From the NCBI GenBank assembly GCA_036250195.1, contig JAVHZZ010000002.1:273219460-273283459 (forward strand): 64,000 nucleotides of DNA, in the 5' to 3' direction. Positions 1-38,608 of this stretch are shown in pieces. A program made the position numbers and the translations under genes. Position 1 is the stretch's first letter. Every line of letters begins with the position of its first letter. Origin of the DNA: Mixophyes australis (taxonomy: Eukaryota; Chordata; Amphibia; Anura; Limnodynastidae). The notes beneath the pieces were generated by a model. It was given only the letters and a program-made list of their open reading frames with translations. It was not told the DNA's origin and did no database searches.

Positions 1-1660
1 AAGGTGGGTTTTTAGGGCCCGTTTGAAACTGGACAGATTAGGGGAAGTTCTGATGGAGGGAGGGAGCTTGTTCCAGTGGAGGGGGGCAGCGCGGGCGAAG
101 TCTTGGATACGTGCGTAGGAGGAGGTTATAAGGGGGGAAGAGAGGCGACGGTCAGAGGCAGAACGGAGAGGGCGGGATGGAGCAAAAATAGAGAGGAGGG
201 TGGAGATGTAGGGCGCAGTGGAGTTGGCGAGGGCCTTGTAGGTGAGTGTGAGGAGCTTAAAGAGGATTCTGAAGGGGAATGGGAGCCAGTGAAGGGCTAG
301 GTAAAAGGGGGAGATAGAAGAGGAGCGGCGAGAAAGGAAAATAAGCCTAGCGGCAGCGTTAATAACAGATCGAAGGGGATCGAGATGAGAGTGGGGGAGG
401 CCAGTGAGGAGGAGGTTGCAGTAGTCCAGGCGGGAGATGATCAGAGAGTGGATAAGGCATTTGGTGGCATCTTGGGAGAGGAAGGGTCGGATGCGAGCGA
501 TGTTACGCAGCTGGAAGCGGCAGAATTTAGCAAGAGAGAGGATGTGGGGGCCAAAGGAGAGAGAGGAGTCAAGGATGACACCAAGGCAGCGAATTTGGGG
601 GACAGAGGAGATAGAGATGTTGCCGATAGTGATGGAGAGGTCAGAAGGGGATGAGGTATGAGAGGGAGGAAAAACTATGAGCTCAGTTTTGGCAAGGTTA
701 AGTTTGAGGAATCAAGAGGACATCCAGGAGGCAGAGAGGCAGGTGGACACCCTAGAGAGGAGGGAGGGAGAGAGATCAGGAGAGGAGAGGTATAGTTGAG
801 TGTCATCAGCGTAAAGGTGGTAGCTGAAGCCGAAGGAGCTGATGAGTTCACCCAGGGAGGAGGTGTATAGAGAGAAGAGTAAGAGTCCTAGAACAGAGCC
901 CTGAGGGACCCCGACTGGAAGGGTGGACGGGGGGGAGATAGACCCAGAGGTGGTGACAGAGAAGGATCGGTGAGTAAGGTAAGAGGTGAACTAGGACAGG
1001 ACTGAGCCTGAGAGGCCGAAAGACTGGATATGAAGGAGGAGGGGGTGGTCAACGGTGTCAAAGGCTGCAGAGAGGTCAAGGAGGATGAGAAGGGAGAAGT
1101 GGCCCCTGGCTTTAACAGAGAGAAGGTCATTGGTGACTTTAGCCAGGACAGTTTCAGTGGAGTGGAGGGGGAGGAAACCAGACTGGAGAGGATCAAGGAG
1201 GGAGTATTCAGAAAGGTAGGAGGTGAGACGGCTGCAGACGAGCCTCTCGAGAATTTTTGAGGAAAAGGGAGAAGAGATATGGGGCGATAGTTTGAGAGAG
1301 AAGTGGGGTCGAGATTAGGTTTCTTAAGAATGGGGGATACGAGAGCATGTTTGAAGGAGGAGGGGAAGATGCCAGTGGAGAGGGAGAGATTAAAGAGGTG
1401 AGCGAGGTGAGAGCAGGTGGTGGGGGAAAGGGAGCGAAGAAGGTGGGAGGGGATGGGATCCAGGGGACAGGTAGTGGGGGGGAGGATGAAATGAGAGAGT
1501 GGACTTCCTCGCCGGTGGTGGGACGGAAGGAGTGGAGGGGAAGGTGGTTGGGGGGAGGACGGAAGAGTGAGAGGGGTGGAAGAGAGAGTGGAGGAGGAGA
1601 TTTCAAGTCGGATGGCCTCGATTTTAGAGGAGAAGAAGGAGGCGAAATCGGAGGCAATAT
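1..1660 (-). pseudogene. L2/CR1-clade LINE, reverse transcriptase region (3' half of ORF2)
   Basis: Conceptual translation of the minus strand, allowing frame changes, gives an ordered series of non-LTR reverse transcriptase motifs: NYRPIS near 1310, FDTVDH near 1050, VPQGSVLG near 900, YADDTQLY near 800, LDYCN near 430, LHWLPFPFRI near 280 and a terminal WNKLPPSIR block near 60. This order and the spacing match the L2/CR1 clade. The copy has stops and frameshifts, so it is a fossil. Its 3' end runs off the left edge of the window. The right boundary abuts an LTR fragment at about 1664. The plus strand is strikingly purine-rich and poor in T. The open frames on the plus strand here are shadows. 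Confidence 0.85.
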
Positions 1661-1663
1661 AGC

Positions 1664-2590
1664 TCTTATTGTATCAAAATATCTATATCACAGACTCAGA
1701 TTGTGTAACACTGCAGATATAATGTGTCAAATGTTTTTGTTTAGTGTATCCAGCCAAATGGCTAATTCAGTCAAGCCATTTCATTGTGTAATCAAGATAA
1801 CAGACACAGTGGGCCTGAGTCATTAAGAAGAGCAAAACAAAAAAGCAGAAACTATCCACCTTGGCAAAACTACATTTAAAATGTAGTACATTTAAAATGT
1901 GGGTGCAGATTTAAAGTTGGAGTAGGGCATGTCCTAGATCAACTTTAAATTTCAGTGTAAAAATAAAGCTATCAAGTATTTGTGTGCTACATGAAAAAGT
2001 AGCCAGCATTTTCTTTACATGCAAAATATAAGGAAAATACTTGCAGTGTAACATGGTTTGTTCCAGATCAAAATGTACTCCTTTTTTTGCTTTGCTCTCC
2101 TTAATGACTAAGGCCCTGTATGTCTAACAGTTAAATAATTTAATTGCCCACTGAAAGGGGGAGGATTAATTCATTGGACCCTACTCCCTGTGTAAATACC
2201 TAAGAATACAAGGAGGGCCGATCCTGGTGTACAAGACATCGCAAAATGGACTCTGTGTCAGGCATTGCAGTGCCATTGGAAGAAACCTTTACCAGGACAG
2301 GGTCTGTGTGAGCCAGTAGCCCATGCTGGGGGAAACAGGACTGTCTAGCTAAACGGTAGTTGTAATACTGTAGGAGGATACAATTCTGAAAGATACTGAG
2401 ATTATTACTTTGGAGTGCTGACTGCAAGAGGCTGCTGGCGGGTACACGCTACCATTTACCCTGTATCTTGAGAATGTTCTATGGTGTTATGCTGTCATGA
2501 TAAAACCTTTTTTTTGTATATACTCTGGTCAACCAGAGTGAGTTGATTCCCATGGAGGATAAGCACTGTCCCAGCTAAGAGTGGTTTACT
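1664..2590 (+). mobile_element. LTR fragment, retrovirus-like or LTR retrotransposon, interrupted by a MITE
   Basis: This segment is homologous, in reverse complement, to 11220-11900. Shared blocks include the CACAGACTCAGATTGTGTAAC segment, the CCAGCCAAA segment, the CAGGACAGGGTCTGTGTGAG segment and the CCCAGCTAAG end. The second copy reads as the 3' part of a 1.5-kb LTR ending in CACA. Here the left part is cut off at the L2 boundary, and a MITE sits inside at 1811-2116. No coding sequence is visible. Confidence 0.6.
1811..2116. mobile_element. MITE, GGGCCTGA family, copy 1
   Basis: The element begins GGGCCTGAGTCATTAAG and ends in the near-inverted CCTTAATGACTAAGGCCC. The interior matches the other two copies at 49606-49914 and 51516-51835, including the phrase about TTGTGTGCTACATGAAAAA. 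It has no ORF. The related LTR at 11220-11770 lacks it, so that copy supplies an empty site. Confidence 0.8.
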
Positions 2591-3128
2591 CATGGTCACT
2601 GACATGGAAAGACTTACTTAGCATGGGATATCCTTTCTTTCTTTCTTGCAAAAACAAATTTCCTCCAACATATGCCTACTGCATCAGAAATCATTACATT
2701 TACAATACAAAAATCAGTGCATTTGCAATTAAATACATCGGCGCATTGCCACACAATTTGAAATACATTTATACAATCAATTATTTCTAGGTGATCCAGT
2801 CATAATGACAAAAATAGTTGCAAAGTAAAATTAACACTATACTGTCCATGATGAAACTGTTCAGTTTTCAGTTGAGATTGCATAAATAGTGATATGTATG
2901 CCCGCACCCATCTATGCCAATACAAGTGTAAAGTGATTTGACATCACAGGTTCCTAATGTATGTGTCTTAACACTCAATTTCTTCCAGCACATTGTAAGT
3001 ATTAAATGAATAAGGGGGCAGCACTGCTTTGAACAGTATGGATTTTAAAAAATGTTTAATCTCATCTTGAATATTTCATTATTGAGTCCTCTAATCCTTA
3101 ACTCTATTTTTTGTTATCACTTTAACAG
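2591..3128. other. Intronic or intergenic sequence upstream of the first visible tetraspanin exon
   Basis: AT-rich sequence with no recognised gene or repeat. It ends in a pyrimidine-rich stretch and an AG acceptor before 3129. Confidence 0.5.
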
Positions 3129-3227
3129 GTTAAAGAAGAACCTTTTTTGCTTGAGTTGCAGAGGTATTACAAAGGAGACAACTCTACTGAAGTTTTCAGC
3201 CAGTCCTGGAACACCATTATGATCGCA
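3129..3227 (+). CDS. Tetraspanin, internal exon: start of the large extracellular loop
   Basis: This exon encodes 33 residues in phase 0, starting VKEEPFLLELQRYYKGDN and ending SWNTIMIA. It follows a TTTAACAG acceptor and is followed by a GTAAGA donor. The pattern of a helical loop start, then D/N-S-T-E-V-F and W-N-T-I-M, is what precedes the CCG motif in TSPAN18 and close relatives. Exons for the first three membrane segments are not in the window, so the gene is cut by the left edge. The next exon continues in the same frame at 5785. TSPAN18-like is my best family assignment, but another tetraspanin of this subgroup is possible. Confidence 0.85.
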
Positions 3228-3867
3228 GTAAGATTTATTCAGGCCTGGCGGTACACTTAACATGTAGCTAAACCTAAACCATTTTAATTATCTTTTTTTA
3301 AACTATGTGTAATAAACATATATTAGTATATGTGACAGTGATAAATAATTATTTAACATACATCAGATCTACAGATCTATCAGATCTCAGCATTTACATA
3401 CTTGGAGCTGCCAGGATGATGTCTCTCATGGGCCAGTATATTATTGTATGTGCTGACAGCAAAGAAAACGTTACTATTGTTATTGAAATTCTTTGCTCTG
3501 ATGTCTATTTTTGTGTTGCATGGCAAGTAAACAGGCAAGTGAGGGGAAATGTTTGCTGCATCATATTTAATAATATTGTTTGTATGCAACTAATCAGATT
3601 CTGGCAACCCATCATATTCTTTCAGCTTACTAGGGCATCTTAGAATATAGAAGCAAACATCTTATTGTTATATTTATAGCACATTTGGACACATTGCTCA
3701 TTTCTGCATACTCTGTGGTCCTGCCACCCACAGGTGACAGTGGTCATTAAGCCAGGCAAAATTCATTACGAGGTTTTTTGACCGGTACCACTTTGTCTGG
3801 TTATAACTCCTTACAAATTTGAAGTATTTACAAGTTGAGGCAGAACTGAATTACTTCACTGTTCGAT
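3228..3867. other. Tetraspanin intron, unremarkable part
   Basis: AT-rich intron sequence. The ORFs here on both strands have no recognisable protein features. Confidence 0.5.
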
Positions 3868-4700
3868 CCCGCGGCAGGCAGTTAGATTTACCACTAGAGG
3901 ACTTCTGAATCATGGTGTCTACTTTATCATCAAAGTGCAGGGAACCTTCAAAGGGGAGTATCAATAGACTATTTTTAGATTAAAAAGCTGCAGAAAATGG
4001 ACAGTGTCAGTGAGCTGTTTTATTCCTCTCTGTGTAACTTCAATGCTTTTCAGAAAATATTCTATATTATTTTTTTTCCGGGACATCAGTAGGAAGCGTC
4101 TCTCCCCATAGTCTGAGTACTCTGGCCACTGAAGCCATAGCTACCCCTTATTTCAAGGTGGTTCCAGAAGAAATAGGAAGCTTTTTTAAAACAATTTTTC
4201 ATGTTCCTAGCCAAATAATCTCTTAGCGGACCACCATCTTCTAAAAGAATAGTGGTTCTGGCTGATAAACTGGCTAATGATGCATCCATCAATTACTACT
4301 TGCTGCATAGGAAAATCTATTTCTCTTATTACAAGGAACTTTTGAAGTGCAGTGGAGGTTTGTGCTTCATTTACCTCTATGGAGTTAGGCAGAATCTCCA
4401 CATTATCCAAATAAAATAGTCTGGGTTCTTTAATTTAATCACTACTAGAGGATTCATCCACCTCTTTCAAAGAATCCAATTCTGAGAATGCCTGTCATCT
4501 AAGTCCATACTTGTCTGGGACCTTGCTCTCTTCACTCACTGCATATCACATAAATTCTCTTTGGTCACAAATGAATTTGTTAAGCTATAAATTCCTTCAG
4601 ATTCTGAGGATTATTTTCTATGGACTTGGAATTACCTTCTGTCCACAGACCCAGTGCTGCTAGCTTTACTCTCTTTCTTCCCCTCCACAGACTGTACAAG
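3868..4700 (-). pseudogene. DIRS-like retrotransposon gag fragment
   Basis: Minus-strand translation gives blocks typical of DIRS-1 type gag proteins in vertebrates: an acidic and serine-rich stretch near 4440, MMDASLASLS with LLEDGGPLRD near 4250, and a PFEGSLHFDDKVD block followed by KSSSGKS near 3900. Frames change between blocks and stops are present. No tyrosine recombinase or reverse transcriptase is visible next to it. It lies in a tetraspanin intron, antisense to the gene. The assignment rests on motif memory and would need a profile search. Confidence 0.6.
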
Positions 4701-5784
4701 AGTGCTGAGAGAGAATAGTATTACAAATGGCTAACTAGCTAAACATCTAGAAGCAAAGCATCCCTAACTTAGGCGTTTATCTTGGACGTGTGTTCTTTGG
4801 CATTTTGTGGGTGGAATCAGGCTCCATCCTGCTGCCAAATGTTTGGTTACTCTGCAGTGGACAGTGGTGCTTCTTCAGGGAGGAGGGGCTGTTAGCTAGC
4901 AGTTCTGAGGTATTGTACTCCATTTTGGCATCCTTTAATCACAGGCGCAGTGAATACACATGCACATAGAACTTTATTCGGCACATACATTCTATTTTCA
5001 ATTAGAATTCAAAGCTTTTCACCTCAATTGCTACCAAATGTAGAAACTAGCAGGCCCTGGGTAGCCAGCTTTGATCTTTGGCTGGCACCACCAGCTGTGC
5101 ATCACCGAGATCACAGTAGCGGGTAAGCCACTACACATACAGAAAACTACTACTTGTCTTCTCTATTCTCAGCTACTGACAGGAACTTCACACTTGGGAA
5201 AAGGAGAAGCTGCACTATATACTGCCTGTGGGCCTTTCTAATTTCCCTTCTCTGCCCAAAAGAAAGGAACTAGTTCATTGTAATGGCTGTCATGGAGGAA
5301 TTAAGATGTAACACAGTTTGTTAAATGAATTACTTGTGTACTTACCATTTGCTAAATTTTAAATAACCTTTAGATATCTCAGACACCTGAATTAGTATTT
5401 CCACATATTACAATATATGCTAGGCTTCAGCACTTGCATAAAAGTCATCCATGATCTTGTTAATTAATTCATAATGCGAATTAGCCAAATAGTGAGTATT
5501 GCTATGTAAAGATTATTGTAGAATTATAAACAATCATCCCAATTGTCCACCATATTTTATAGCATCCATTTTTAAAGCATATTACAGTATTCAGCATACA
5601 TGCCAACCATATTATACTGCTCCATGAGCTAGGACTATTTATTTCATGGGCAATTTTAAATGCAAAATAGAACTGTGCTGGTTTGGCATGCTGGGCAACA
5701 TCTTAAACATATTTACCTTTTTTGATTATTTCTTAACTGCCGTGTTACTAAATAGTTTATGCTCTATCTTTTTACCTGGCTTAG
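4701..5784. other. Tetraspanin intron, no feature seen
   Basis: No gene, terminal inverted repeat or poly-A tail recognised. It ends with a pyrimidine-rich tract and TTAG acceptor at 5784. Confidence 0.5.
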
Positions 5785-5964
5785 CTGTCCTGTTGTGGAA
5801 TATCTGGATTGAATGATTTTGATAACAGATCTCATTTCCATGACCTATATCCATTGGCTCCATGGCCGGAAGCATGCTGCAAGCGCGACAACCCTGTTTT
5901 GTCTGGAGTAATCAAGGACAAACAGAAGTGCATGGAGAATATACCAGACCACACCAATAATCAG
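5785..5964 (+). CDS. Tetraspanin, exon encoding the cysteine-rich extracellular loop
   Basis: Sixty codons in phase 0 between a TTAG acceptor and a GTAACA donor. The exon contains the hallmark CCG motif (residues 3-5 of the exon), then PEACC (22-26 region) and a single downstream Cys in KQKC. With the GC that opens the next exon this gives the six-cysteine pattern of many tetraspanins. In the family these cysteines form disulfides that shape the large extracellular loop used for partner binding in tetraspanin-enriched membrane domains. The exon is fully open and has no sign of decay, unlike its surroundings. Confidence 0.9.
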
Positions 5965-6039
5965 GTAACATATTTGCTAGGTTATAACTGAATTTCTGCA
6001 TTTCACATCATCTACTGCACATATATAAATAGATACATA

Positions 6040-6790
6040 TTCTGTGTGTGTGTGTGTGTGTGTATATATATACCTCCTGAGGAAGTCCTGTTTGAGGACG
6101 AAACGCGTAGAGGCTTCTTTCCAACTGTTCCTGTGTATTTGGGTCACCACACCATCAGTCGCTCCTGTGCGGAAGACTGTGGGAGGTTCCTGCTGTACCT
6201 GAGGACATGGTATATCTGATACCTGAATTTCAGATAAGCTTGCATTATTATTACTCTTTGTGAGTGTGCATTTTATATGTTAAAATCCTGATTAAATACT
6301 GTTACCTTGAAATACTACACCATATAGTGTATTATCTCCTTTTTTCTTACCCATTGAGTGGAAGAGAGATATGATGTTTACAGTATGCTGATGTTTTTGA
6401 CTGGAGACCAGACTTGCAGTTGCTGAGTATGCTGACCACATAATATTGAAAGTGAAGTGGTTGTTAAGCTGTGTTCCAGTCTTTGGATTAATCATACAGA
6501 TAAGCGATATAATTTCCTTTGGGTGTGTAATACTATGGTGATGGGCTATCACTAACACACTGCTTCTACTAATCCTATGCCTATATTATTCTGTCTTTTA
6601 TATGTGCGAACTGGACTCATACCCTTGGTCCTATAAGACCGTCCAGCAAACGTGGAACTTTGATCCATTGACTATATTATTATTTCCCCACTGAACCTGG
6701 GATAAATTCCTAGTAACACACCATTGTGCGCCGTATCCTTGTTTGACTTTCCATATATATATATATATATATAATGGTGAACAATTTTAT
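6040..6790 (+). mobile_element. Possible Penelope-like element terminal fragment
   Basis: The hammerhead-like motif at 6073-6113 and the flanking (GT)n/(TA)n and (AT)n tracts (6040-6072 and 6750-6773) suggest the terminal repeat of a Penelope-like element or derived non-autonomous copy. No reverse transcriptase is visible here. The limits are guesses set by the microsatellites. Confidence 0.3.
6073..6113 (+). ncRNA. Hammerhead ribozyme-like motif, type I
   Basis: The plus strand reads CCTC (stem I, 6073-6076), core CTGAGGA (6077-6083, fitting CUGANGA), one extra A, stem II GTCC/GGAC closed by a 7-nt loop (6085-6099), core GAAA (6100-6103), a minimal stem III C-GC-G with A-U closing (6103-6108), cleavage position A6109, and the stem I return strand GAGG (6110-6113). 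Hammerheads with a very short stem III are known from Penelope-like elements. The extra A before stem II departs from the strict consensus and could lower activity. A (GT)n/(TA)n microsatellite lies immediately 5'. Confidence 0.6.
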
Positions 6791-7218
6791 AACGATAGAT
6801 CGGACTCAGAAGGTGGGCATTTACTGGTGGGATCCTGGGCTTGAGTGTACCTCCATCCTTAAAGCACATTTTTGGTTCCTTGATGTTTACAAACAGCATT
6901 CAAAACGGCCATTCACAGCTGGTGTATTGTCAAAGCTTATCTATCTGTTGTCACCATGCAATGTCGCTAGATATTTCCTTCTAGAAGCCAGTCATGGCAA
7001 ACTGTGTTGTAGTTGTGGCCTGAAGTCATTCTGGGTAGGCGAAATTTCCCTTGCCCGACATAATCCCCAGAGTTCATCCAGTTTTAGGGAGTAATAGTTG
7101 TTCATGGCTCATGTTTCTTGCAACTCATCTGATAGACTTCCTCTGGGTGCTGTGTAGCCCATGCTGTGCTGTACCTAAAAGCCTCTTGGACCGCAACCAT
7201 CCTTTGCATCCTTCCCTG

Positions 7219-7540
7219 TGTCACACTCAGGATACAATCAGTCTAGATTTGCGCAGACCTAGCAAGGCGCGGAGTCTAACAGCCCCCTGGTTTTCAGCAA
7301 GAACCACCGCAAGGTGGAATGGACTTGGCTGCAAGGGAACTGCATGTCGTGGCCCTTGGTTTGAAATGGACCGCTCAAGAGAGGCGGTCAGTAACAACCC
7401 AGACTACCGAGCAGCAGTTGGATATTGGGAGATCTGTGATGAAGTCCATTGACAAGTGACTCCAGGGACGTTCCGAAACAGGTAAGATACCCGTATGGGT
7501 GTTGTCTAGGAATTTTATTTTGAGCGCAAATGTTGCCTTC
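7219..7540 (-). mobile_element. 3' LTR of a decayed Ty3/gypsy element
   Basis: The segment 7230-7362 matches 10475-10603 closely, both carrying GTCTAGATTTGCGCAGACC, the CCCCCTGG block and CTTGGCTGCAAGGGAACTGC. The left edge TGTCAC (7219) corresponds to the CA end of the LTR in the minus orientation. Beyond 7362 the two LTR copies diverge and only a weak match around the ACAGGTAAG segment remains, so the right limit is approximate. Confidence 0.6.
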
Positions 7541-7589
7541 TTGTTTTAGAACCGGGTCTGAAGGTTATGCAAATATTAAATCGTGAATA

Positions 7590-9470
7590 GAATAAAGATC
7601 ACCTGGCCTGACGAGAGTTCAAACACGTGGCAGACTGTAAATAAAATAAAAAAATTTGGTCAGTATAGATGATTATAGGAAAAGAAGCCCCCTCTAGAAG
7701 GTGTCTCCAATCCTCTAATGCTAATTTGATGGCAAGTAGCTCGCGGTCTCCTATCCCATCATTTTTCTCAGCAGAAGTAAATTTTTGAGAGAAGAATCTG
7801 CATGGTTGCATCTTCCCCATGGACGACCTTTGAGAGACAATGGCTCCCACTCTGATAGAGAAGGCATCAACCTCCAGCTGAAAGGAACGAGAGGTATCTG
7901 GTTGCTGCAACACTGGAGCTGTGGTAAAGGCCTCTTTAAGAAGAGAAAAGGCTCTAATTGCTTCAGGTGGCCAGGTTTTAGATTTGACAGAGCGTTTGGT
8001 TAGAGCAGTGATAGGTGCCACAAGAGAGGAGAAGCCTTGAATGAATTGCCTGTAGAAGTTAGCAAATCCTAAAAATCGTTGAATAGCCTTAAATTCAACA
8101 GGCTGAGGCCAATCCAGAACAGCTTGTAATTTTACTGGGTCTATTTGAAGACCAGAACCAGAGATAATAAACTCTAGGAAGGGAAGTTTCTCTTTCTCAA
8201 AAAAACATTTCGGAAGTTAACAACAAAATTTATATTGCCTGAGACGAGTTAGAACTGAAGACACAAGGGGGTAAATGTATGAACATGCGGGTTCTTCAAC
8301 ACCCGCGAGTTCAGCCCGTTCGGCGATTAAATTTCAAGTGCCACTGCATTGTAAAGGGAAACTTCCCTTTACAATGCAGCGCCGCTTGAAATTTAATTGC
8401 CGAACACGCTGAACACGCGGGTGTTGAAGAACCCGCATGTTCATACATTTACCCCATGTTCTCTATAACACTTTAGGTCTGTAGAGTAATTGAGTATGTC
8501 GTCAATGTAAATAATGACAAAACGGTATAGCATGTCCTGGAAAATCTAATTCATGAAGTGTTGAAAAACAGCTGTCCTGTTACATAACCTGAAGGGCATC
8601 ACTAAATATTCAAAATGACCATCGAATGCTGTTTTCGACTCATCTCCCCTTTTTATCCATATCAAATTGTAGGTACCTTGTAAATCTAGTTTGGAAAAGA
8701 TTGATGCTAATTTAAACTTGTCAAAAAGCTCAGAGATTAAAGGCAAAGGGTATCTATGTTTAATAGTGAACACATTAAGATTCCTATAATCAATGCATGG
8801 ACGCAGACCTCAGTCCTTTTTTTTTTTTTTTACAAAGAAAAATCCAGCTCCTACTGGAGAGGGAGACTTTCTAATAAACCCTCGCTTGAGATTGTCTTCA
8901 ATATATATGGACATGGCCAAAGATTCAGGCTGAGAGATAGAATAAACTCGTCCTCGAGTGGGGTTCTTATCTGGGAGTAAATTGATGGCACAATCCCAAT
9001 GGAGGTAATTTGGAGGCCTCCTCTTCATTGAATACATCAGAAAAATAAATTTAAGGGGCAGGAATCTCAGTAGGAACAGGAATCTCTGTAGGAATTTTTT
9101 TGACTGGAGCTAAAACCTGTCATAAACATTTAGAGAGAGACAGGATGACCCCCAAGATAGAATTTGCATGTTTTGCCAATCCAGAACGGGAGAGTAAATT
9201 CTTAACCATGGCAGTCCTAGAACTAGAGGGTTGATACTCTTAGGGATGACTAACAATGAAATAGTCTGCAAGTGTAGGGCTCGAATTTGCAGGGACATAG
9301 GAGCGGTGCGGAATTTTACTGATCCACTTTCAATTCTACTGCCAACAATAACAGTGAGCAGCTGGGCAGCAGCAGCTGCTGAAATGAAATTTCCAGCTGC
9401 GCCGGAGTCAATGAGAGCCAGTAGAGAAAGTTGGTGATTGGAGTCGCAAAAAAGATACTTCAATAGAGAA
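7590..9470 (-). pseudogene. Ty3/gypsy pol: protease, reverse transcriptase, RNase H start
   Basis: In minus-strand order: an aspartic protease block ALIDSGAAGNFI near 9400, a PVLDW linker near 9190, RT motifs with [11 protein letters not shown] and EYLVMPF near 8600-8690, the DD box just before a palindromic MITE at about 8500, then RT thumb and RNase H blocks RFLGFANFYRQFIQGF near 8060, LEVDAFSIRVGAI near 7870 and RELLAIKLALEDWRH near 7720. Stops and frameshifts break the frame, so it cannot make a full polyprotein. Integrase is missing: the coding trace ends near the left LTR. It lies antisense in a tetraspanin intron. Confidence 0.85.
8277..8455. mobile_element. Palindromic MITE, GGGGTAAATGTAT family
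   Basis: Starts GGGGGTAAATGTATGAACA and ends with the inverse, TGTTCATACATTTACCCC. The two halves are complementary over almost their full length, so the whole 179 bp can fold into one hairpin. It splits the gypsy reverse transcriptase. The same end sequence marks elements at 16939 and 38609-40155. Confidence 0.85.
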
Positions 9471-9526
9471 GTTGGAGTTACTGGAACGGATTCCTGAGAT
9501 GCCTACCCTAGCCTCGCCAGAGCCAT

Positions 9527-10438
9527 TTAGGCCTTCTCGTTTCCCAGCCGAATAAGGCATTTGCTCAGAAGATGACCTGATTCTCCACAATATAGGCAAA
9601 GATTACCCTTAAAGCATTTCTCCCTCTCCTCTGCAGTCAGACGTGATCGCTCTAGTTGCATTGGGTCTCCCTCTGGATAAATAGGAAACTGTGATCTAGG
9701 AGCAACCTGAGTAGGAGCGCGGTGAGATGGCTCTCTCTCTTGATTTCTTTTCTGAAAATGAATATCTATCTGATTCCATAGAGAAATTAAGGCATCAAGA
9801 GAAGAAGGGAGATCCCTACCAGTCAACTCATCCTTAATTCTTTCAGACAGTCCCTGCCAAAAGGTGGCGATGAGCGCCTCCTCATTCCACCGAAGCTCAG
9901 AAGCAAGGGTACGGAAATGAATAGCATACTGTCCCAATGGTAGTGGACCTTGGCACAATGGCAGAAGACCAGAGGCTGCACTGGAGACTCTGCCAGGTTC
10001 ATCAAAAGCTCTTTTGAAGGCCTCTAAAAATGTATTGTATGTTGGAAGGAGAGGGTGATTACGCTCTCAGAGAGATATGATATAGGCAATTTTGGTTCTG
10101 TCACTGGGAAAATTTCCAGACTGTAGTTCAAATTGAATAGAGCATTGGTTAATAAAACCCCTGCATGACTTGGGATCCCCATCAAATTTGGAGGGATTAG
10201 GAGTCCGCACCTGGGAGGGCCCAGCAGGAGTACTAACATTGGGAGCTACAGCTTCTTCAACTGAGGGGTTTGGAGGAGGATTGACATGGGAAGCCTGGGT
10301 ATTCTGCAATGTGTCCATTCGAGTAGAGAGACCCCTTAGAAATTGAAGAAGTTGTGCCTGGTTCTTCTCTTGCTCTTCTACCCGACCTACCAATTGCCCC
10401 AAAAGATCTCGTGTTGAGGGATTGCCAGATTCATCCAT
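9527..10438 (-). pseudogene. Ty3/gypsy gag
   Basis: The start codon at 10438 lies about 30 bp inside the 5' LTR. The N-terminal part (10067-10438) is a coiled-coil-like region with LVGRVEEQEKNQAQL, then a proline-rich linker and a capsid start KFDGDP. A second frame (9527-9958) carries the rest of capsid and a CCHC zinc knuckle C-x2-C-x4-H-x4-C near 9570 in CLYCGESGHLLSKC. The frame break between the two parts makes it a pseudogene. Gag of such elements packages the RNA in virus-like particles. Confidence 0.85.
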
Positions 10439-10469
10439 ATTAAAAAGTTTTTGGGGGTCAGATCAAACT

Positions 10470-11170
10470 GTCACACAGTCTAGATTTGCGCAGACCTAGC
10501 AAGCGCGGAGTCTAACAGCCCCCTGGTTTTCACCAAGAACCACCGCAAGGTGGGATGGACTTGGCTGCAAGGGAACTGCAGGTTGTGGCCCTTGGTTTGG
10601 TCACTAGACGTGAGCGAAATGGAAGAAACTGACAATATAATAGGAGTAGTAATTTGGTACCTTGAGGATGTTGTGGTCTCCAATAAACGACAGGAGATGA
10701 CAGTCTGAGCAGAGCAGGTGGAGAGTCTGGATACAAGCTGGTTCGGTACACAGGTCACATGGAAGCAGTACACAGGATATGACAGGAGAGTAGTCTGGTA
10801 TACAAGCCGGTTCTGTACACAGGTCAGATGGCAGCGGTACACAGGATTTGACAGGAGAGTGGTCTGGTATACAAGGTGGTTCGGTACACAGGTGAGAATT
10901 CAAAGATGCAAGTAACCCGGGAGCCAGGACAGGAACACAGGATAATAGCAACAGAGCTCTGGAGACACAAGGACAGAGTCAGGAGGACTAACCTGTTGAT
11001 CTGACACAAGTATGATGTCAGATCCTCCTTTTTATTTTGAACTATCCACCTCAGGGTCACATGAGAGATCCGACTGGGAGTTACGTGACCTCCCCACTGC
11101 GAACCCGGAAGTGCGCTGCCGGCACTGGAGCGAGGACAGGTAAGCGTTCTTACACCCGGTTCTTATGACA
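10470..11170 (-). mobile_element. 5' LTR of the Ty3/gypsy element
   Basis: The minus strand begins TGTCATAAGAACCGGGTGTA at 11170 and ends TGTGACA at 10470, giving the TG...CA ends of an LTR of 701 bp. It abuts the gag leader on one side. Internal short tandem-like blocks about 50 bp long are seen around 10720-10900, each with GGTACACAGGT-like cores. The matching 3' LTR is at 7219. Confidence 0.75.
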
Positions 11171-12713
11171 TTGGGCTGAGTGATCCCACTGCTTGCCACC
11201 AAATGTGAGGACATCACCCTTAGCTGGGATGGAAGTTACCCTCTGTGTGATTCAACTCACTCGGGTCGAACAGAATAGATCCAAAATAAGGCTTTAATGC
11301 GACAGCACAATACCACAAAGCCCTCACAATATATAGGGTACATGGTAGCATGTATCCTCCAGCAGCCTCTTGCAGTCAGTACTCCAAAATAATAACCTCA
11401 GTATCTTTCAGAGTCTTATCCTCCCGCAATATTACCACTACTGATTAGCTAGACAGTTACAGTGTTGCCCAACCTGGGTTACTGGCTCACACAGACCCTG
11501 TCCTGGTAGGGTTTCCTCAAGCGGCACTAAAATGCCTCCCCAGAGTCCTTTTCGCTGATGTCTTGTACACCAGGATCCTCAAAGCTAGCATAGCTCTATT
11601 GGCATTCTGCTCTCCTTATATTCTTGGCTGTATACACAGAGAGTAGGGTCAAATGTCTCAATCATCCCCCTTACAGCAAGGGTCTATCAGTGAACACTTT
11701 AGCTGCTAGACATACAGTACCTTCTCTGTTATTATACAATGGAATGGCTTGACTCAATTCGCTGTTTGGCTGGATACACTAAACACGGGGTTACAATATT
11801 ACATCAGGGAATAACATTTCAGGCTTACATGAAACAATAAGACTTTTGACACATTGCATCAGCAGCGTTACACAATCTGAGTCTGTGATACATTTTCATA
11901 CAATAACATTTATATTGATACATATTAATACATTTCCCAATACTATCTTAGCCAGTATATTAATGTGGAGGCACATTGCATATCATCTAGAAGTTGTATT
12001 GTAATCTAATTGCCTCTCAGATTACCTGTTGACCTAGCTAATGAACTTGGGCTGCCAGCTAGCTATGTTAAGTCATTCAGCCATTATTTTGATTACAAAC
12101 CAGATTTAAGCTACACATCATAACAATGGACATTTAAGACAAATGGCAATTACCTTAGCTAACACAAGCAAAATGACTTCTGCTTCCTGTTACTTTCACA
12201 CAATATGGCAATATTCTTTATATTTCTAATACATACAATATTGCAGGTAATAGTAATGGCAAAATGTACCCAATAATATGAAATAATAATACACATAATA
12301 CACCGATGCTGTGGTGTATATACTTTGACTGGGCCAAGGATTAAAAAGTACATTAAACTGTGAGAAACGGCTGATGAATAAAAAGTTCTCAGTCCAGTAG
12401 CACCCCTTTTTCTGACACTCCCACATTGGACAATCATCCCGTCCTTCACGTAAGAAGCTCCGAGCCTCAGATTCCCCTCTTCCTCATCCTGTCTGATAGC
12501 CCTGAAGAGAAATCCTGCAGCAGGGAACTAGCTCAGTTCAGCAGGTTGCTTAGCTAAAGTCTGATCCTCAGGTGTAACTGAGCCTCCACCATTGGCACTG
12601 TGCATCTGTGCCTCAAGAAGAAGAGGCTAAGACAGGCAGACAATTACATCAGCATCTGTGCAGCCTCAGCCTCAAGTAAGTGTTTGAGGGGAGAGTGATA
12701 TCTTCCTGTGACA
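11171..12713 (-). mobile_element. Retrovirus-like LTR (11204-12713) plus primer-binding-site region
   Basis: On the minus strand the LTR runs TGTCACAGG (12713) to CCTCACA (11204), 1510 bp. It is followed by TTTGGTGGCAAGCAGTGG, a leader resembling a retroviral primer-binding region, which after 33 bp is cut by the gypsy LTR at 11170. A second, partial copy of the LTR lies at 1664-2590. An AATAAA-like poly-A signal is implied by CATTAAAGCC near 11290 in the minus strand. No gag, pol or env of this element is visible. Confidence 0.5.
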
Positions 12714-14611
12714 CCCTGATCAGTATGCTTACTGAGATTTAAGCCACTGATACAAATAGACATCTCAATGACCAAGAGCCTACTCAGAGTATATATGATT
12801 ATACCAACATCTTAGTCACTGAACCCTTACATGGTGTATATCTAAAGGGTATTCTGTGGTGGTCAGTTGTATGCGCTCTGTATGGTATATCAGTCCCTGG
12901 GATGCATTTTGTATTATATAGTGGTCATTGGGATTATCTCTGTATTGTATATTGGTCTCTGGTAAGCTAACTGTATTGTATTTAGGTCCCTAAAATGCAT
13001 GCCTTATATAGAGTCCCTAAAATGCCTGCCATGGTTGTGACTCTGCCTACCATTGTGTATTGCATTGGCCCTGCATACCACCGATGTGGCTAGGGATAAT
13101 GATTTGCTAATTTTGTATTGGCCCCTCTGACATTTGAGTTGGTCCCACCTACAAGTGAGAATTTATGCAGTTTTTTGAGAATATTTTCCAAGGCCCCTTC
13201 CCAAACTGCCCCTGCTTTACCAGAGATATTTACTGGGGATCTCTGCGAATAAGACACACCTCATTATCCAACCTTTCTCAATCCTACCAGACACTCCCTA
13301 GAACTGGTTGCTTACAGGACTTGACAACTATCCTACATGAGCAACCAACCGACACAAAATACAATACACATTATCATTAAAGAACAATGCCTGACAACTG
13401 CAACAAATACAGGTCATTACCCCACGTAAGTACTGGTGATGTGGACAGCCTACCTAAAAACAGGCCGAATGCTTGTGAGACCCGAGGTCTGGGACTTATG
13501 CAGATTGGTGCCTGGGCCTAGCTGGGACCTATTGCCTGTGGTTGGCAGTTGCCTAATACCTGAGACTGCAGCCTGGACTGAGGCCTGAACTGAGGCTTTG
13601 ATTTTTGGCCAGACCTGGAGCCTAGGGCTGTGGTTGTTGGTAGAGGACTTTGACTGTGGCCTGGGTTCTCTTTGACAGAGGAGCAGGGGCCTATGATCTA
13701 CTGAGGTTTGGTGGCTTATATGGCGGTGTTGTCTGGGTGGACAGACAGACACAGACCTGTTACCTGGTCGCACTGTCCCAGGCCTGTGCTGAGATCTGTC
13801 CTTGCTGCCTCCCTGCATTATCTGTCACCGGTTTTCCCTTTTGCTCCTCCCTCTTACATGACCACAGTGTGCCATTACTGTTGAACAGTGTTAGCTGACT
13901 GCTCTGTAGAAGGTAATGTTGAAGGCGGGGAAACATGAGCTTGTGTCATCTTAAAAATAATCACAATAACCAGTGACACCCTAAAGTTATGGACATAATA
14001 ATTCATTTTTGTCTGTTACATAAATGTTTTCTTGTAAGATATCAATGAGTTGCAAACTTTAAAATAGATTAATCAATGAAAGGGTTACAGGGAGAATATA
14101 TAATATTATCATGAAACTGTTCTCATATGTTAGCATGAAAGTTGACTTAGCACAGGTTTTGTAAGTAGGTTACAGCAATTTTTTGTTCAGATAAAATAAG
14201 CTTGTAGAAGTGGAGTTTGGGTTGAACTAATATTGCAGCCTATTGTCGGATATTCGACTTGGTAAATCCTCTATTGTAGTTTAGCAAAGAGTGATTGCCA
14301 TTTGTGGTGCATGTGTAGTTCATGGCAATATATCTACTCAGAGGTATAGGGGAGATCATTTTTTACGGTGCATGGTAGGTTGCGCTTGAAATAATCCTTT
14401 TTATAAATGTAGTACACTTTATTTTATTTTCATAATTACAATAATTACAATTTGTACCCAGCTGGAAGTTCTCTTCCTCCAAAATATTAATTTATTAATT
14501 TTACAAATGATCCACTGTAAAATAATAATTTGACTTTAGATTATTAACATTTCACTTTATAGAAATTGCATTCTTTTGTACACTATCCCGCTTTTAATCC
14601 TTTTGCATCAG
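12714..14611. other. Tetraspanin intron
   Basis: A short imperfect tandem of about 40 bp with TATTGTATA and GGTC phrases occupies about 12830-13060. The rest, including ORFs at 13165-13380 and 13450-13898, shows no recognisable domain and no splice context. It ends at the GCATCAG acceptor at 14611. Confidence 0.45.
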
Positions 14612-14695
14612 GGCTGTTTTGTTACCATTGCGAGAAATTTGAAGAAATATATTTCCATATCAGGAGCTGTAGGTTTTGGAGTTCTCGGAATTGAG
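14612..14695 (+). CDS. Tetraspanin, exon encoding loop end and fourth membrane segment
   Basis: Twenty-eight codons in phase 0 between a TTTTGCATCAG acceptor and a GTAAG donor. The exon opens with GC, the last conserved loop cysteine, then FVTIARNLKKYISISG and a hydrophobic run AVGFGVLGIE, the start of transmembrane segment 4. The same layout (QGCY..., then G-A-L-A-I-G-V-L-A-I-E) occurs in TSPAN18. It is separated from the previous exon by an 8.6-kb intron swollen by mobile elements. Confidence 0.9.
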
Positions 14696-15670
14696 GTAAG
14701 TTATTATGTATATATTATTACATAAATGAACAAATCAGTGCTTAATGATATATTCAAAGTTCAACGATGCAATAGAGAAAATATAATCTTTCACTCTGCC
14801 ACACACCAAACAATTTATATACTTGTATTGCTAGTAGTCCAACTGAACTGTGTATATTTTCTTAGGTGCAAATATTGCTTAAGCTTATGGTTTCTTAAGA
14901 GTAGAGAGGGGACTTTCAGCGTGCATGGACCAGCATCACTAGGCCCAGAAACGGAACTTATGAGGTGTGGGCCACGGTGCAGGGAAGCGGGGAGGAGGGA
15001 ACCGGGGCCCACAGCTCACTAGTTCCCCGTACAGCATGCCCCATTATCTTCCGGTGCACCGCTCCTGCTGCATCAATTTTAGTTCCGACACTGACTAGGC
15101 CCCTTCACCACTCTAGCAGTATCTCCTCTACTGTGCCACCTATACTTTTCTTTGAGTGATAACAACAATAGTGGCAAATTTCAACCTTCTAATTTCAATA
15201 CTGTAATAAACATAAAGTGATTGGGGCACAGGCCTATATTTGTTGCCTTCTTGCAGAGTTTCACTTTGTATCAGTAAAAGTCCATTGCTGAAACCTGAGA
15301 AATGATTATGATTATGCTAAACTTCAAGGCTTTTTAAACTTTTACTGATTAGGGATATAATTGGCACCTACTAAAAAGGGCTAACATAAGTTACAAAAAA
15401 TAAAAATAAATAAATGTCAAGGTAACCTTGCTAGTTTAGAAAAATTCACAGCCTGTTGCTGTGATGTGGGCAATATCGCTATTTTCTCTCATTCCATTAG
15501 TTTTGATAATTGTTACCCAATGTGATTTTTTTTTTTTGTATAATAGTCTTTAAAAGGAATATAACTACAGTAAATATTCCAATTTTAAAGATGAAAGGAG
15601 TTCAGTCGGTAGTAAAAATGTAATTATTATTATTATGAGCATTCATTAAAATAATGAGAGACTGTGCGGT

Positions 15671-16017
15671 CTATTTATCAAAGGGGTACAGGGAGACTTA
15701 CCAAGCTCCTGGCCAATGAAGACTATCACCATCAGTTGTCATTGCCTATTTATTAAGAGCCGCCTCTGCCCGCCAAATTCTGATGCCATATTTGAATGTG
15801 ATAAGGTGTCCTCAGGAAAAATGCTTTATTATTAAAATAAAGCATTTAAAAAAAATATATAATAAAAAATAATACAGGGTTTTTTGTTTGTTTTGTATAC
15901 ATGTGTATTTTTTTTCCTTTTTTCAATTTATCAATTTTTTTTAATGAATCTGAACGTGGAAGCCCAAGTCTGAATTTTTTGGGGTAAAATGCTGCAAGGA
16001 GCCATGATATATAGACC
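15671..16017. mobile_element. MITE with GGTCTATTTATCA ends
   Basis: The left end GGTCTATTTATCAAAGGGG is mirrored by TGATATATAGACC at the right end. The interior is AT-rich with an AAAGCATTT / AAATGCTTT style palindrome around 15820-15850. There is no coding potential. The superfamily cannot be told from the ends. Confidence 0.55.
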
Positions 16018-16298
16018 CCTATGAAGTTTGTGCTCTAGGTTGTCCAAATTAGATTTTGCAGCAAAAAGCATTCCTTGCAGTAAATATAGTTTTCTATCTG
16101 GTTATTACTATGTAGGTAATTTGTGCTAAAAAGTGTAAGAATAAGTATAAAATTGTCACAGTGTAAATACATATACAGTCAGTATATAATGATACAGCGT
16201 TTATATCTTTTGGAAAAATTATTTATAATAAGAGTGTTTCATTAAGCTTGTAAAATATTTTCATTTATGATACTTACACTAACATGCTTAACCCACAG

Positions 16299-16346
16299 AT
16301 GTTCGCCATGTTCTTTGCTCTTTGTCTTTATTACAACTTTGACTAG
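16299..16346 (+). CDS. Tetraspanin, terminal coding exon
   Basis: Fifteen codons plus TAG after an ACCCACAG acceptor: MFAMFFALCLYYNFD. It completes transmembrane segment 4 and leaves a very short cytoplasmic tail, as in the TSPAN18 subgroup, where the equivalent is ELFAMIFAMCLF. The initial ATG is an internal codon, not a start. The frame and the hydrophobic pattern join exactly onto the previous exon. Confidence 0.9.
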   Translation: MFAMFFALCLYYNFD

Positions 16347-16518
16347 AAGACCAGGCTGTGTGAAGAAGGATATCTGCGAGAGATCAGATTCAAACAATGT
16401 GGACATTTCCCTTTTCAATTACTATAGTTAAGGTGGTTAAAGGCATATATACCACTTTCCTTCATTTTGTGGATACCATTCACAATGTAATCAATAACTT
16501 ACCACATCTGCAGCAATT

Positions 16519-16524
16519 AATAAA
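16519..16524 (+). promoter_or_regulatory. Candidate poly-A signal of the tetraspanin gene
   Basis: The first AATAAA downstream of the stop codon, about 170 bp after it. No clear GU-rich element was confirmed, and the real 3' UTR may be longer. Confidence 0.35.
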
Positions 16525-17406
16525 ACTGATTAACTATTTAATTTCAGTTGGCTAAGAAGCACAATAGATAATCAGAAGATTAATAGATTATCTATATTTT
16601 TCAGGGACACACAGTATTTACATGATCTTACGCATTGCTAAACAATGTATGCTTTATGGTCTTACAAAATGAAACATCAAACACATCACACACTAATATG
16701 CTATAAAATAATGCTTAATAAGTTGTTTTAAGGCATGGAATTAAATCCACATGGTGGGATGAGAGGGAGTGGGCATGAACAATTAAATGGATGACAATAC
16801 ATCAGCACAACCCAACGGATGACAGTACATCACCATCACAGGGGGATGTTGCTTTCTTGTCATCCTTTCTCTGAAATTACCATTTATGCTTAATTTGTAA
16901 AGCCTACTCCTGAGACAGACTAGACTTTAAACTCTCCAGGGGGTAAATGTATCAAGCTAAGAGTTTTCCGGCAGGTTTGAAAAGTGGGTATAAAGACACA
17001 TGTGATAGAGGAAAGCATGCTTAACAAGGGCACTCTGTAATAGTCATTTTATTTAAAATATAACTTTTATTAGTTTAATTTTAAAATATAATGTTCCCAT
17101 CATAAACCTAAATATCGTTGGCAGCGAAATAATAAAAGGAAGAAAAAGTAATGAAAATAAAGATTAAAATAAAGATGTTAATAAAATGGCAAAAAATGCC
17201 AAGCCTCGCTATGTTGTTTTATTTCTTATATATTTTGAAGATATATTTCATTAATTAATCGTTCTCACGCTGTGTAAATCCAAAGTTAACCAGATATATC
17301 AATAGGTGAATTCGAATTGCTAAATGACAAGGTTTGTATTCATAGTTTTTACCATTAATGAAGCTTATTTCTCCATTCTTATCATAAATGGTAACATTGA
17401 TCACAT

Positions 17407-18083
17407 ATCGTTGGTAAGACCTCATCTTGAATATGCAGTATAGTTCTGGGCACCACTTTATAAAAAAGATAATTTGGAACTAGAAAGGGTTCAGAGAAGG
17501 GCAACAAAATTGATAAAGGGTATGGAGTCATTAAGTTATGAGGAAAGGTTAGCCAGTTTAGGCATGTTTACTTTAGAAAAGAGTCGTCTAAGGGGAGATA
17601 TGATTACTATGTACAAATACATTAGGGGTCAATACAGAGAACTTTCATGGGAACTTTTTACCCCAAGGACTATACAAAGGACACGTGGTCACCCTCTAAG
17701 GTTAGAGTAGAGGAAATTTCACAACCAGAAAAGGAAGGGGTTCTGTACAGTAAGGGCAGTCAAGATATGGAATTCATTGCCAGGGAAGGTTGTGATGGCA
17801 GATTCAATAGATATGTTTAAGAAAGGGTTAGACAAATTTTTAGCGGAAAGGTGTATCCAGGGATACGACCATTAATTATAATGTAGGATAGTAGTGGAAA
17901 TAGGGTAAAAATAGGACTGCATTATTGAGTCTGGGGGGATTTTCACAATTGAAACAGATTGGCGGTTGCTTACTCTGGATCGATTTCAAATATAAGTGCA
18001 GGATCGCAGGAGATCCAAAATAGGTTGAACTTGATGGACTGGTGTCTTTTTTCAACCTCATCAACTATGTTACTATGTTACCT
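17407..18083 (+). pseudogene. CR1 LINE 3' end, truncated copy
   Basis: Nearly identical to 53110-53787, with scattered mismatches only. It encodes the C-terminal block with LERVQRRATKLIKGMESLSY, RLRGDMITMYKY, a stop after LRLE at 17710, then WNSLPGKVV. The 3' end carries the ATGTTACT repeat typical of CR1-like tails. It lacks the whole reverse transcriptase core because of 5' truncation. Confidence 0.9.
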
Positions 18084-18500
18084 ATATGTCTATTACAAGA
18101 GATTAGTCAAAAAGACTTCTATCAAGTTAATTAGTACAGTAACTGGTTCTCCAAAGATAGTGTTGATTTAGTATAATTTAATCAGTATGAACTGTTACTA
18201 AGTAACTATTTACACTTCAATCTCAGAGACATTATAGCCTAGGGGAAGCTAGATTTCTCTTTTATCACTTGTCCGGTGCAAGAAATTACTGGGTGAATGC
18301 CATGATTAATTAGCACTCTGACATCGGGTTATCTGAATCCCTTTTATAGCTATCCCTTGGCTAGTAAGATTTTCAGTTCAGTACATCTCTATGAGACAGG
18401 ATTAGTATTCCTCTGGTAATTGGATTATAACATATCAGAACAAATCATAGAGACAGCGTGAGGTCTTATTGTAACATAGTGAGGCGAATGTTGAAGTGCG

Positions 18501-18557
18501 TTTCGCTACTCGCTTTAACTAGGCAAAACTTTTGCCTAGTTAAAGCGAGTAGCGAAA
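18501..18557. repeat. Perfect 28-bp-arm hairpin
   Basis: Left arm 18501-18528 and right arm 18530-18557 are exact reverse complements around a single base. The arms contain CGCTACTCGCTTTAACTAGG. Such a palindrome could extrude as a cruciform or mark the terminus of the surrounding inserted element. Confidence 0.85.
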
Positions 18558-18700
18558 TGCGCTACAGTCTGGATATGTAAATAAAAATACTTAGTGCGGT
18601 GGTATATAACCTCTCTTATTGAAAAGTGGGTATGTTGCCTATAGCAACCAATCAGATTCTAGCTATCATTTTTTAGAATGTAGTCAATAAATGGTAGCTA

Positions 18701-19562
18701 TGATGAACTCCCCCACCGAAATTAAATTCAGGGGGTGGAGATTGCCATTTTGGGATTGTTAGCGTGATAGCTAATGTGGTTTTTCTGTCTTGCACATTCC
18801 CCACACTCTGGCAGATGGTTGGATTAGGGACATTTCCTTGATCAGAAAGTGGATGTACACTTATATATGTGTGAGGTAAACAAACAGATGCATATGTTTA
18901 AAACTAAATAAATTGTGCGTTCACATATTTTTAAAATATCTTTGACTAAATATTTATGTATGTACAGCTGTTTTTCACAGGCATGTTGGCCATATTGGAG
19001 CATGAAGGCATCAAAAATTGTGTACTTACAGGCTTCTATCCTCTTCTACTTATGGTTAAAATTTTCAGAAACAAATCGTCCATGTGCCTAATATATAACA
19101 TGTCAAATGTACAAGAACTTATTTTATTGTGCAAAAGTCAATATTTATCTGTTGGGTACTAAAAATATTTTCATAATAAAATTAGCTATAGCTATAGCTA
19201 AAAAAAGGTATATTAAAGCATAGCATAATTAAAATTAGCAAAATACATATTGTTTATAAAAGCAAGTGAATACATTAGTAATAGAAAAAAAATCCAGAAT
19301 ATAGTATATGAGTATAATATAGAGGCTGTTCTACTCACAAATTCACTTCTATCTTAAGTTTGTGCTTTTTCAATAAAAATACAATAATAATAAAAACCAG
19401 GTGTTTTGAACTATCAGCAGTTACAGAGTCATTATTAGTCCTAAAAAATCTTTGTAAACTACCCATGTATGTGTGTCTGTGTGTGACCCTGCGGTAAGGT
19501 AGGCTGACCTCCTGGATCCCCGCTGTGCCTCCCAAACTGCTAGCTTGTGCATGTGTTTGTGA
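18701..19562. other. AT-rich sequence without recognised genes
   Basis: Only short ORFs. An AGCTATAGCTATAGCTA microrepeat lies near 19184. Nothing else is supported. Confidence 0.4.
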
Positions 19563-20145
19563 TAGGGATGAGCGGGCTCGGATTTCCGAAATCTGAGCCC
19601 ACCCGAACAGTGCGGATCCGACGGGAACTTCTGGGTGCCAAACGGAGCCAAACCGAGGCTATGACATCCAAGTCTCGCTTCGGATTTCGCGAGACTCGGA
19701 TGTCATAAATTCAGCGCTAGCGACCGCCATCTTCATTCTGGCTGCGATCACTCGTGAGAGAGGTTGCAGTTAGGGAGCTCCTGTCCTTGTTTTGATCTTA
19801 GTGGTACTTTTGTGCTTTGTCCAGTGGTCTGTTCTGCCAAGTCTAGTGGTGCTTTGTCCAGTGCTCTGTCCTGCTGAGTCCAGTGGTGCTGCCTGTGTCC
19901 TGTGCTCTGTCCTGCTGAGTCCAGTGGTGCTGTCTGTGTCCTGTGCTCTGTTCTGCTAAAAACTAAATTAAAAAGTTATACAAAAATTATAAAAAAAAAA
20001 TAAGAAAATAAATTAAAAAATTATAAAAAAATTATACAAAAATAATTGTAAAAAAATATAAAAATATATTTTTAAAATTCTAGGTACTGCTGTATAACTC
20101 CAGTACAGTGGTACTCTCCTGTGCCGCAGATAATTTGTAAAGGCT

Positions 20146-28593: not shown

Positions 28594-28617
28594 TTTTTCT
28601 ATGGCTGGCGCACGGCA

Positions 28618-38607: not shown

Positions 38608-38608
38608 G

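What the first reader, a model, noticed from the sequence alone, without database searches (positions are those of the whole stretch)
6073..6113. Consensus-like type I hammerhead ribozyme in a tetraspanin intron
The sequence shows all core elements in order: CUGANGA, stem II of four G-C/A-U pairs, GAAA, a minimal two-pair stem III and a UA cleavage step, closed by a four-pair stem I (CCTC/GAGG). The only departure is an extra A before stem II. Hammerheads with tiny stem III are known in Penelope-like elements, and a Penelope RT lies elsewhere in the window. It is on the gene's sense strand, so it could in principle cut the pre-mRNA.
Basis: partly seen in the sequence, partly recalled or inferred. 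Interest (0 to 1): 0.75.

Follow-up and report, generated by a model that had tools for sequence, protein, structure and literature searches.

The report
Stray transposon-type hammerhead in frog intron
A short sequence in an intron of a frog gene has the complete layout of a small self-cutting RNA (hammerhead ribozyme) of the kind carried by Penelope-like jumping genes; such stray copies are already known to be scattered through animal genomes, and a lone copy like this one probably cuts poorly if at all.

Summary
The motif is real. At 6073-6113 (+): stem I CCTC/GAGG, CTGAGGA, an extra A (6084), a five-pair stem II, GAAA, CGCG, T, A. It starts at position 109 of an ~8.6-kb intron of a frog tetraspanin-18-like gene, on the sense strand. 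The extra A is probably not a defect. Four Penelope-like element (PLE) loci were recovered; three show hammerheads, all with the same extra A and a palindromic helix-III stub; the fourth has hardly any flank. In viral contigs, 22 of 22 pattern hits without the extra A are complete hammerheads, against 0 of 20 with it. A descriptor with extra A and palindrome, set after seeing the data, hits once here and in 0 of 3,035 simulated windows. Rfam is silent here, but also on the PLE motifs and on 13 of 15 canonical viral ones. The monomer has one helix-III pair; ACGCGU could form six pairs between two copies, and the window holds one. Best reading: a dispersed, probably PLE-derived, minimal type I hammerhead, weak as a monomer. 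A new member of a known kind. No frog DNA was searchable; copy number, conservation and activity are untested.

The parts
6073..6113 (+). PLE-type minimal type I hammerhead motif (whole)
6073..6076 (+). stem I, 5' half (CCUC)
6077..6083 (+). core C3-A9, CUGAGGA
6084..6084 (+). extra A between A9 and G10.1; also present in the 3 PLE loci that show a hammerhead
6085..6099 (+). stem II, five pairs GUCCU/AGGAC, loop GUUUG
6100..6103 (+). core G12-A15.1, GAAA
6103..6108 (+). palindrome ACGCGU: one A-U pair with CGCG loop in a monomer, six-pair helix III in a dimer
   Evidence: the only ACGCGT in the window
6109..6109 (+). residue 17 (A); predicted cleavage between 6109 and 6110
   Evidence: sequence; inference from the hammerhead scheme
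6110..6113 (+). stem I, 3' half (GAGG)
5785..5964 (+). tetraspanin-18-like exon just upstream (tblastn span); donor GT at 5965-5966
3126..3230 (+). preceding tetraspanin-18-like exon (tblastn span)
14606..14698 (+). next tetraspanin-18-like exon (tblastn span; the match GCF starts at about 14612)
16281..16343 (+). last coding exon of the gene (tblastn span, ends LYYNFD)

Best explanation
The sequence is a PLE-type minimal type I hammerhead: CUGANGA plus an extra A, a short stem II, GAAA, a palindromic stub instead of helix III, UH, and a short stem I without loop-loop contacts. It most likely arrived in the intron as a strongly 5'-truncated remnant of a Penelope-like retroelement or a derivative. 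In a complete tandem element there is one hammerhead per head-to-tail unit, so a transcript can hold two. Their palindromes pair, giving a double hammerhead with a stable helix III, in which each core cuts the other copy's cleavage site and releases unit-length RNA. Alone in the intron the motif can form only one helix III pair, so cutting of the tetraspanin pre-mRNA should be weak or absent. Shown: sequence, host gene, strand, the layout shared with PLE loci, no second copy in the window. Inferred: origin by retrotransposition, the dimer mechanism, low activity.
For: An alignment of PLE proteins recovered four PLE loci from prokaryote assemblies, presumably host or environmental contamination. 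Three show hammerheads with the same extra A: L043 at 941 and 6382, L044 at 4254, L046 at 1146, with helix III palindromes ACGU, ACGU and AGCU. L043 holds two tandem units of about 5.44 kb, 99.8% alike, one hammerhead each. Descriptor: 1 hit in the window, 4 in the PLE loci, 0 in 378,564 bases of 42 viral loci, 0 in 3,035 simulated windows. Control: 22 of 22 viral hits without the extra A are complete hammerheads, 0 of 20 with it. The lowest-energy fold of two copies of the window motif is the double hammerhead. Review PMC7761336 (section 8 read): thousands of minimal type I hammerheads lie dispersed in non-coding animal DNA, some in PLE pseudo-LTRs. PMC6466107 (passages): such dimers need a palindromic stem III loop and tandem motifs.
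Against: The window motif has a 4-nt palindrome, the three PLE loci 2 nt. No PLE coding sequence lies next to it; 6069-6300 matches nothing else in the window and nothing in L043-L046. The extra-A rule rests on three PLE loci, two of them (L043, L046) with nearly the same stem II. In the same calculation two copies of L043 or L044 fold into extended duplexes, and L046 pairs its palindrome but not stem I. The dimer energy of the window motif is unremarkable against shuffles. The monomer hammerhead with its A-U pair is 7 kcal/mol worse than the best monomer fold. No relative in frog DNA could be shown, because no frog DNA was searchable.
Confidence: 0.75

Rival explanations
1. Remnant of a retrozyme or newt-satellite type element rather than of a PLE. 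It would work the same way: a dimeric hammerhead that releases unit RNAs, circular RNAs of about 170-400 nt.
For: PMC7229834 (passages) describes one of two axolotl hammerhead groups as having a single-pair helix III capped by a palindromic tetraloop, with poor monomer activity (6% in 1 h; the other group 22%). The CGCG loop here fits that description better than the 2-nt PLE stubs do.
Against: That group keeps loop 1-loop 2 contacts; here stem I is four pairs and open, with no loop. No tandem copy in the window. The extra A matches the PLE loci; whether retrozymes carry it was not tested.
Confidence: 0.15
2. Domesticated intronic hammerhead that regulates tetraspanin-18-like pre-mRNA, like those reported in amniote introns (RECK, CTCL).
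For: Sense strand, intron, shortly after the donor site; intronic hammerheads conserved in amniotes are known (PMC6155905, passages).
Against: No conservation evidence could be obtained. The motif abuts a TG/TA microsatellite in an intron that also holds LTR-element pieces. Related motifs are reported to need dimers or protein.
Confidence: 0.03
3. Chance resemblance.
For: The loose descriptor is met about 0.007 times per simulated window, so a genome of some gigabases would hold hundreds of chance hits at that looseness. Two 3' details (4-nt loop) differ from the PLE loci.
Against: All nine stem pairs are Watson-Crick; with those limits the expectation is about 6e-5 per window (independent-base estimate). 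The extra A and the palindrome, neither required by the general consensus, both match PLE loci; 0 of 3,035 simulated windows (descriptor chosen after the fact).
Confidence: 0.05

Closest known systems
Small hammerhead variants of Penelope-like elements (Cervera & De la Pena 2014; Lunse, Weinberg & Breaker 2017: titles seen in reference lists, papers not held; summarised in PMC7761336)
   Same: Minimal type I; no real helix III; no loop-loop contacts; dispersed in non-coding DNA; palindromic stub and extra A as in L043, L044, L046
   Different: Four-nucleotide palindrome instead of the two of L043, L044, L046; no adjacent PLE body
Amphibian retrozyme / newt satellite hammerheads (PMC7229834, passages)
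   Same: Single-pair helix III capped by a palindromic tetraloop (axolotl group 1)
   Different: No stem I loop, no tandem repeat; whether that group has the extra A was not tested
Plus-strand hammerhead of chrysanthemum chlorotic mottle viroid (PMC3705267, passage)
   Same: Additional A between A9 and G10.1, tolerated there with a moderate loss of rate
   Different: Infectious plant RNA; no evidence of common descent
Hammerhead of PAc, a Poseidon PLE of Anolis (PMC11167929)
   Same: PLE-borne; its cut lies 26 bp after a start codon at the start of stem II, here 25 nt from 6085 to the cut
Intronic amniote hammerheads (RECK, CTCL; PMC6155905, passages)
   Same: Intron, type I
   Different: Conserved across species there; conservation untested here

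Membership tests
Hammerhead ribozyme, type I | C3UGANGA9, G12AAA15.1, U16.1, H17 in order, three helices, open stem I | tested here: met
   but helix III is a single pair in the monomer and one base is inserted after A9
Hammerhead ribozyme, type I | Covariance-model match (Rfam) | tested here: inconclusive
   none here, none in the PLE loci with the motif, 2 of 15 canonical viral motifs at gathering threshold
Hammerhead ribozyme, type I | Self-cleavage after residue 17 | not testable with these tools
   needs an in vitro assay
PLE-type minimal hammerhead | Helix III reduced to a palindromic stub | tested here: met
   ACGCGU; PLE loci ACGU, ACGU, AGCU
PLE-type minimal hammerhead | Extra A between A9 and stem II (feature derived here from three loci) | tested here: met
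   0 of 20 viral extra-A hits are hammerheads
PLE-type minimal hammerhead | Lies in a PLE, or in tandem with a second motif | tested here: not met
   one motif in the window, no PLE body adjacent. Dispersed copies are reported; so it is filed as PLE-type in layout, not as a PLE
[quoted passage not shown]
   no second copy in the window
Retrozyme / newt satellite hammerhead | Loop 1-loop 2 tertiary contacts | tested here: not met
   stem I is four pairs without a loop; judged on secondary structure only
Conserved intronic hammerhead | Conserved at the orthologous site across species | not testable with these tools
   no vertebrate genome was searchable

The most novel reading that the evidence does not exclude
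Solo PLE-type hammerheads in host introns are switched on by PLE protein made elsewhere in the genome, as reported in vitro for the Anolis PLE and its own RNA, so that active PLEs cut host pre-mRNAs carrying such motifs and make host gene output depend on transposon activity.
Probability: 0.03. Interest if true: 0.85.

Novelty: new member of a known kind. Interest (0 to 1): 0.3.

Why it matters
It shows how to read such motifs: the extra A that makes them look defective is shared with hammerheads of Penelope-like elements, and the Rfam searches run here do not find those. A search with extra A and a palindromic stub should recover many copies in amphibian and fish genomes (a prediction, not tested) and would allow a count of how many lie in introns on the sense strand, where cutting could matter.

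Tried and rejected
Rfam on the window and on 5800-6400: no hammerhead; judged uninformative. Viral scans for the extra-A motif: 15, 3, 2 and 0 hits, none a complete hammerhead. Genome-contig scan with the window's stem II letters fixed: 0. PLE search of viral contigs with one window fragment and with alignment A1: no relatives; plasmid and phage records: none. Protein search with the peptide of one frame across the motif (6073-6216): no homologue; other frames were not searched. Pfam on P0001 and on the three + frames of 1-9,992 and 10,001-19,992: no tetraspanin hit; PDB none; the gene was identified only. Possible target-site duplication GTATATATATACCT 6062-6075 / GTATATCTGATACCT 6210-6224, put together by eye from 6-mers: low-complexity and overlapping stem I, not counted. 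MAFFT alignments A2, A3 misplace the GAAA of L046, so no covariance model was built. Search of papers for the string GAAACGCG: 399 papers, 20 listed, no listed title concerns hammerheads. Cervera 2014, De la Pena 2010, Seehafer 2011 and Lunse 2017 are not held.

Full report
WHAT IS THERE. Numbering by the hammerhead scheme (recalled): C3-A9 = 6077-6083, G12-A15.1 = 6100-6103, U16.1 = 6108, residue 17 = 6109, cut between 6109 and 6110. Two corrections: stem II has five pairs, and the supposed two-pair stem III would enclose only two bases, so the monomer has one pair, A15.1-U16.1, closed by CGCG.

WHERE IT LIES. A protein search with the upstream exon gave five hits of five candidates, all named tetraspanin-18-like, from species that are frogs (Pseudophryne corroboree 89% identity, E 2.6e-21). 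tblastn of two of these on the window placed exons at 3126-3230, 5785-5964, 14606-14698 and 16281-16343, all on +. The motif lies in the intron from 5965 to about 14611, starting at intron position 109, on the sense strand. Pfam and PDB searches with the 44-residue piece alone found nothing.

IS IT MORE THAN CHANCE. A loose descriptor (both strands, G-U allowed, 0-1 inserted base, helix III loop 0-12) gave one hit in the window and 21 hits in 3,103 first-order Markov windows, 10 of the 21 without insertion. An independent-base estimate with only Watson-Crick pairs and a five-pair stem II gives about 6e-5 per window. Folding energy adds nothing: monomer z -0.52, 62 of 200 shuffles as stable; dimer energy reached by 477 of 2,000 shuffles and dimer gain by 1,435. 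The best monomer fold (-11.4) keeps stems I and II but pairs parts of the core; the hammerhead with its A-U pair scores -4.4, without it -10.3.

THE EXTRA A. Rfam shows no hammerhead here. To learn what PLE-linked hammerheads look like, I aligned 11 of the 16 proteins found with the window's own PLE fragment and searched genome contigs: 37 stretches matched a peptide pattern and four encode a PLE relative, in assemblies of Epulopiscium, Enterovibrio, a Bathymodiolus symbiont and a Saccharibacterium, presumably host or environmental contamination. Three of the four contain hammerheads: L043 at 941 and 6382 (identical), L044 at 4254, L046 at 1146. The fourth, L045, shows none, but has only 186 and 104 bases beyond the match. 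All three have an A between A9 and G10.1, and all have a palindromic helix III stub (ACGU, ACGU, AGCU). Stem I is 4, 4 and 2 pairs. Stem II is GACCC/GGGTC, GCC/GGT (one G-U pair) and GACC/GGTC, so L043 and L046 are alike there and may not be independent. L043 holds two head-to-tail units of about 5.44 kb, 99.8% alike, with one hammerhead each. With the descriptor 'extra A, palindrome of 2 or 4, stem I at least 2, stem II at least 3' the hits are: window 1, PLE loci 4, 42 viral loci (378,564 bases) 0, simulated windows 0 of 3,035; the same descriptor without an inserted base hits neither window, PLE loci nor viral loci.

CONTROLS. In viral contigs the pattern without the extra A gave 22 hits (on 21 contigs), and 22 of 22 have complete stems I-III by the test. 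Patterns with the extra A gave 15, 3 and 2 hits, of which 0 of 20 are complete; these patterns are not identical in their 3' letters, being the closest counterpart. A further pattern gave no hit. So in that collection the extra A is not a feature of hammerheads, while in the three PLE loci it was. Rfam as a yardstick: no hammerhead in L043-L046 at E up to 1. Given 15 of the 22 canonical viral loci at gathering threshold it reported the pattern's motif in 2 (L030, L034), and in L023 a hammerhead at another place. So its silence says little, for canonical as for PLE motifs.

PRECEDENT. The plus hammerhead of chrysanthemum chlorotic mottle viroid has an additional A10 between A9 and G10.1, with a moderate rate loss (PMC3705267, passage). 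Whether the extra A of PLE motifs is already in print I could not establish. Lunse 2017 and Cervera 2014 are not held. I saw passages or sections of 11 held papers; none of those passages mentions it for PLE motifs, but I read no paper whole, and figures are not held. [quoted passage not shown]

HOW IT WOULD WORK. Two copies of the window motif fold, unconstrained, into the double hammerhead: both stems II, two intermolecular stems I and a six-pair ACGCGU helix III, -28.3 kcal/mol against -11.4 for one copy. Against this, L043 and L044 fold in the same calculation into extended duplexes, and L046 pairs its palindrome between copies but not stem I, so that fold is suggestive only. Published work says that amphibian and PLE motifs with a weak helix III cleave, or may cleave, as dimers; in axolotl, monomers of the two groups reached 6% and 22% in one hour. 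The Anolis PLE hammerhead cleaved only when PLE protein was added, and no RNA-seq ends were found at its cleavage site (PMC11167929). The window holds no second motif and no second ACGCGT, so the dimer cannot form within the part of the pre-mRNA seen here. I therefore expect little cutting of the tetraspanin transcript. Transcripts could pair in trans, but this seems unlikely at low concentration (inference).

ORIGIN. PMC7761336 section 8 reports thousands of minimal type I hammerheads dispersed in non-coding DNA of animals and some in PLE pseudo-LTRs. The window motif fits this. The PLE fragment at 37713-38683 has no hammerhead near it, and nothing ties it to the motif. The 232 bases from 6069 have no second copy in the window and no match to L043-L046. 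In the Anolis element reverse transcription starts 111-118 bp into a reading frame that begins at stem II; an imperfect repeat at 6062-6075/6210-6224 would end an insertion about 125 nt after the start of stem II, but the repeat is low-complexity and overlaps stem I, so I do not rely on it.

VERDICT. Observation confirmed; interpretation partly supported. A new member of a known kind, of modest interest. The useful lesson is that the extra A and the palindrome are search keys, and that Rfam silence does not argue against such motifs. Limits: no vertebrate DNA collection was available, the own-genome search did not complete (12 requests), three PLE loci are few, and activity is untested.

Noticed in passing
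7599-10462 (-): LTR-retrotransposon pieces, Ty3/gypsy-like (RNase H domains at 7599-8216, gag at 9527-10066), antisense inside the same tetraspanin intron.
   Followed up: partly
37713-38683 (+): Broken Penelope-like reverse transcriptase in two frames; the two best hits are frog proteins, Dendrobates tinctorius and Ranitomeya imitator.
   Followed up: partly
28462-34320 (-): Long array read as SPSLPRCH-like repeats, open in several frames; looks like a minisatellite, not tested.
   Followed up: no
52316-53575 (+) and 23843-24352 (-): Reverse transcriptase domains (PF00078), LINE-like by recall.
   Followed up: no
60677-61138 (+): DDE_3 transposase fragment, Tc1/mariner-like by recall.
   Followed up: no
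L043 1-11018: Two tandem PLE units of about 5.44 kb inside an Epulopiscium assembly; probably host-fish DNA left in a bacterial genome record. L044, L045 and L046 look like similar contamination (hosts not verified).
   Followed up: partly
L019-L040: 22 viral loci (21 contigs) with complete canonical hammerheads CTGANGAGTCC...GGACGAAACGCG; Rfam at gathering threshold reported the motif in 2 of the 15 given to it.
   Followed up: partly
L023 4849-4915 (+): A further Rfam type I hammerhead (36.2 bits) about 950 bases before the pattern hit in the same viral contig.
   Followed up: no
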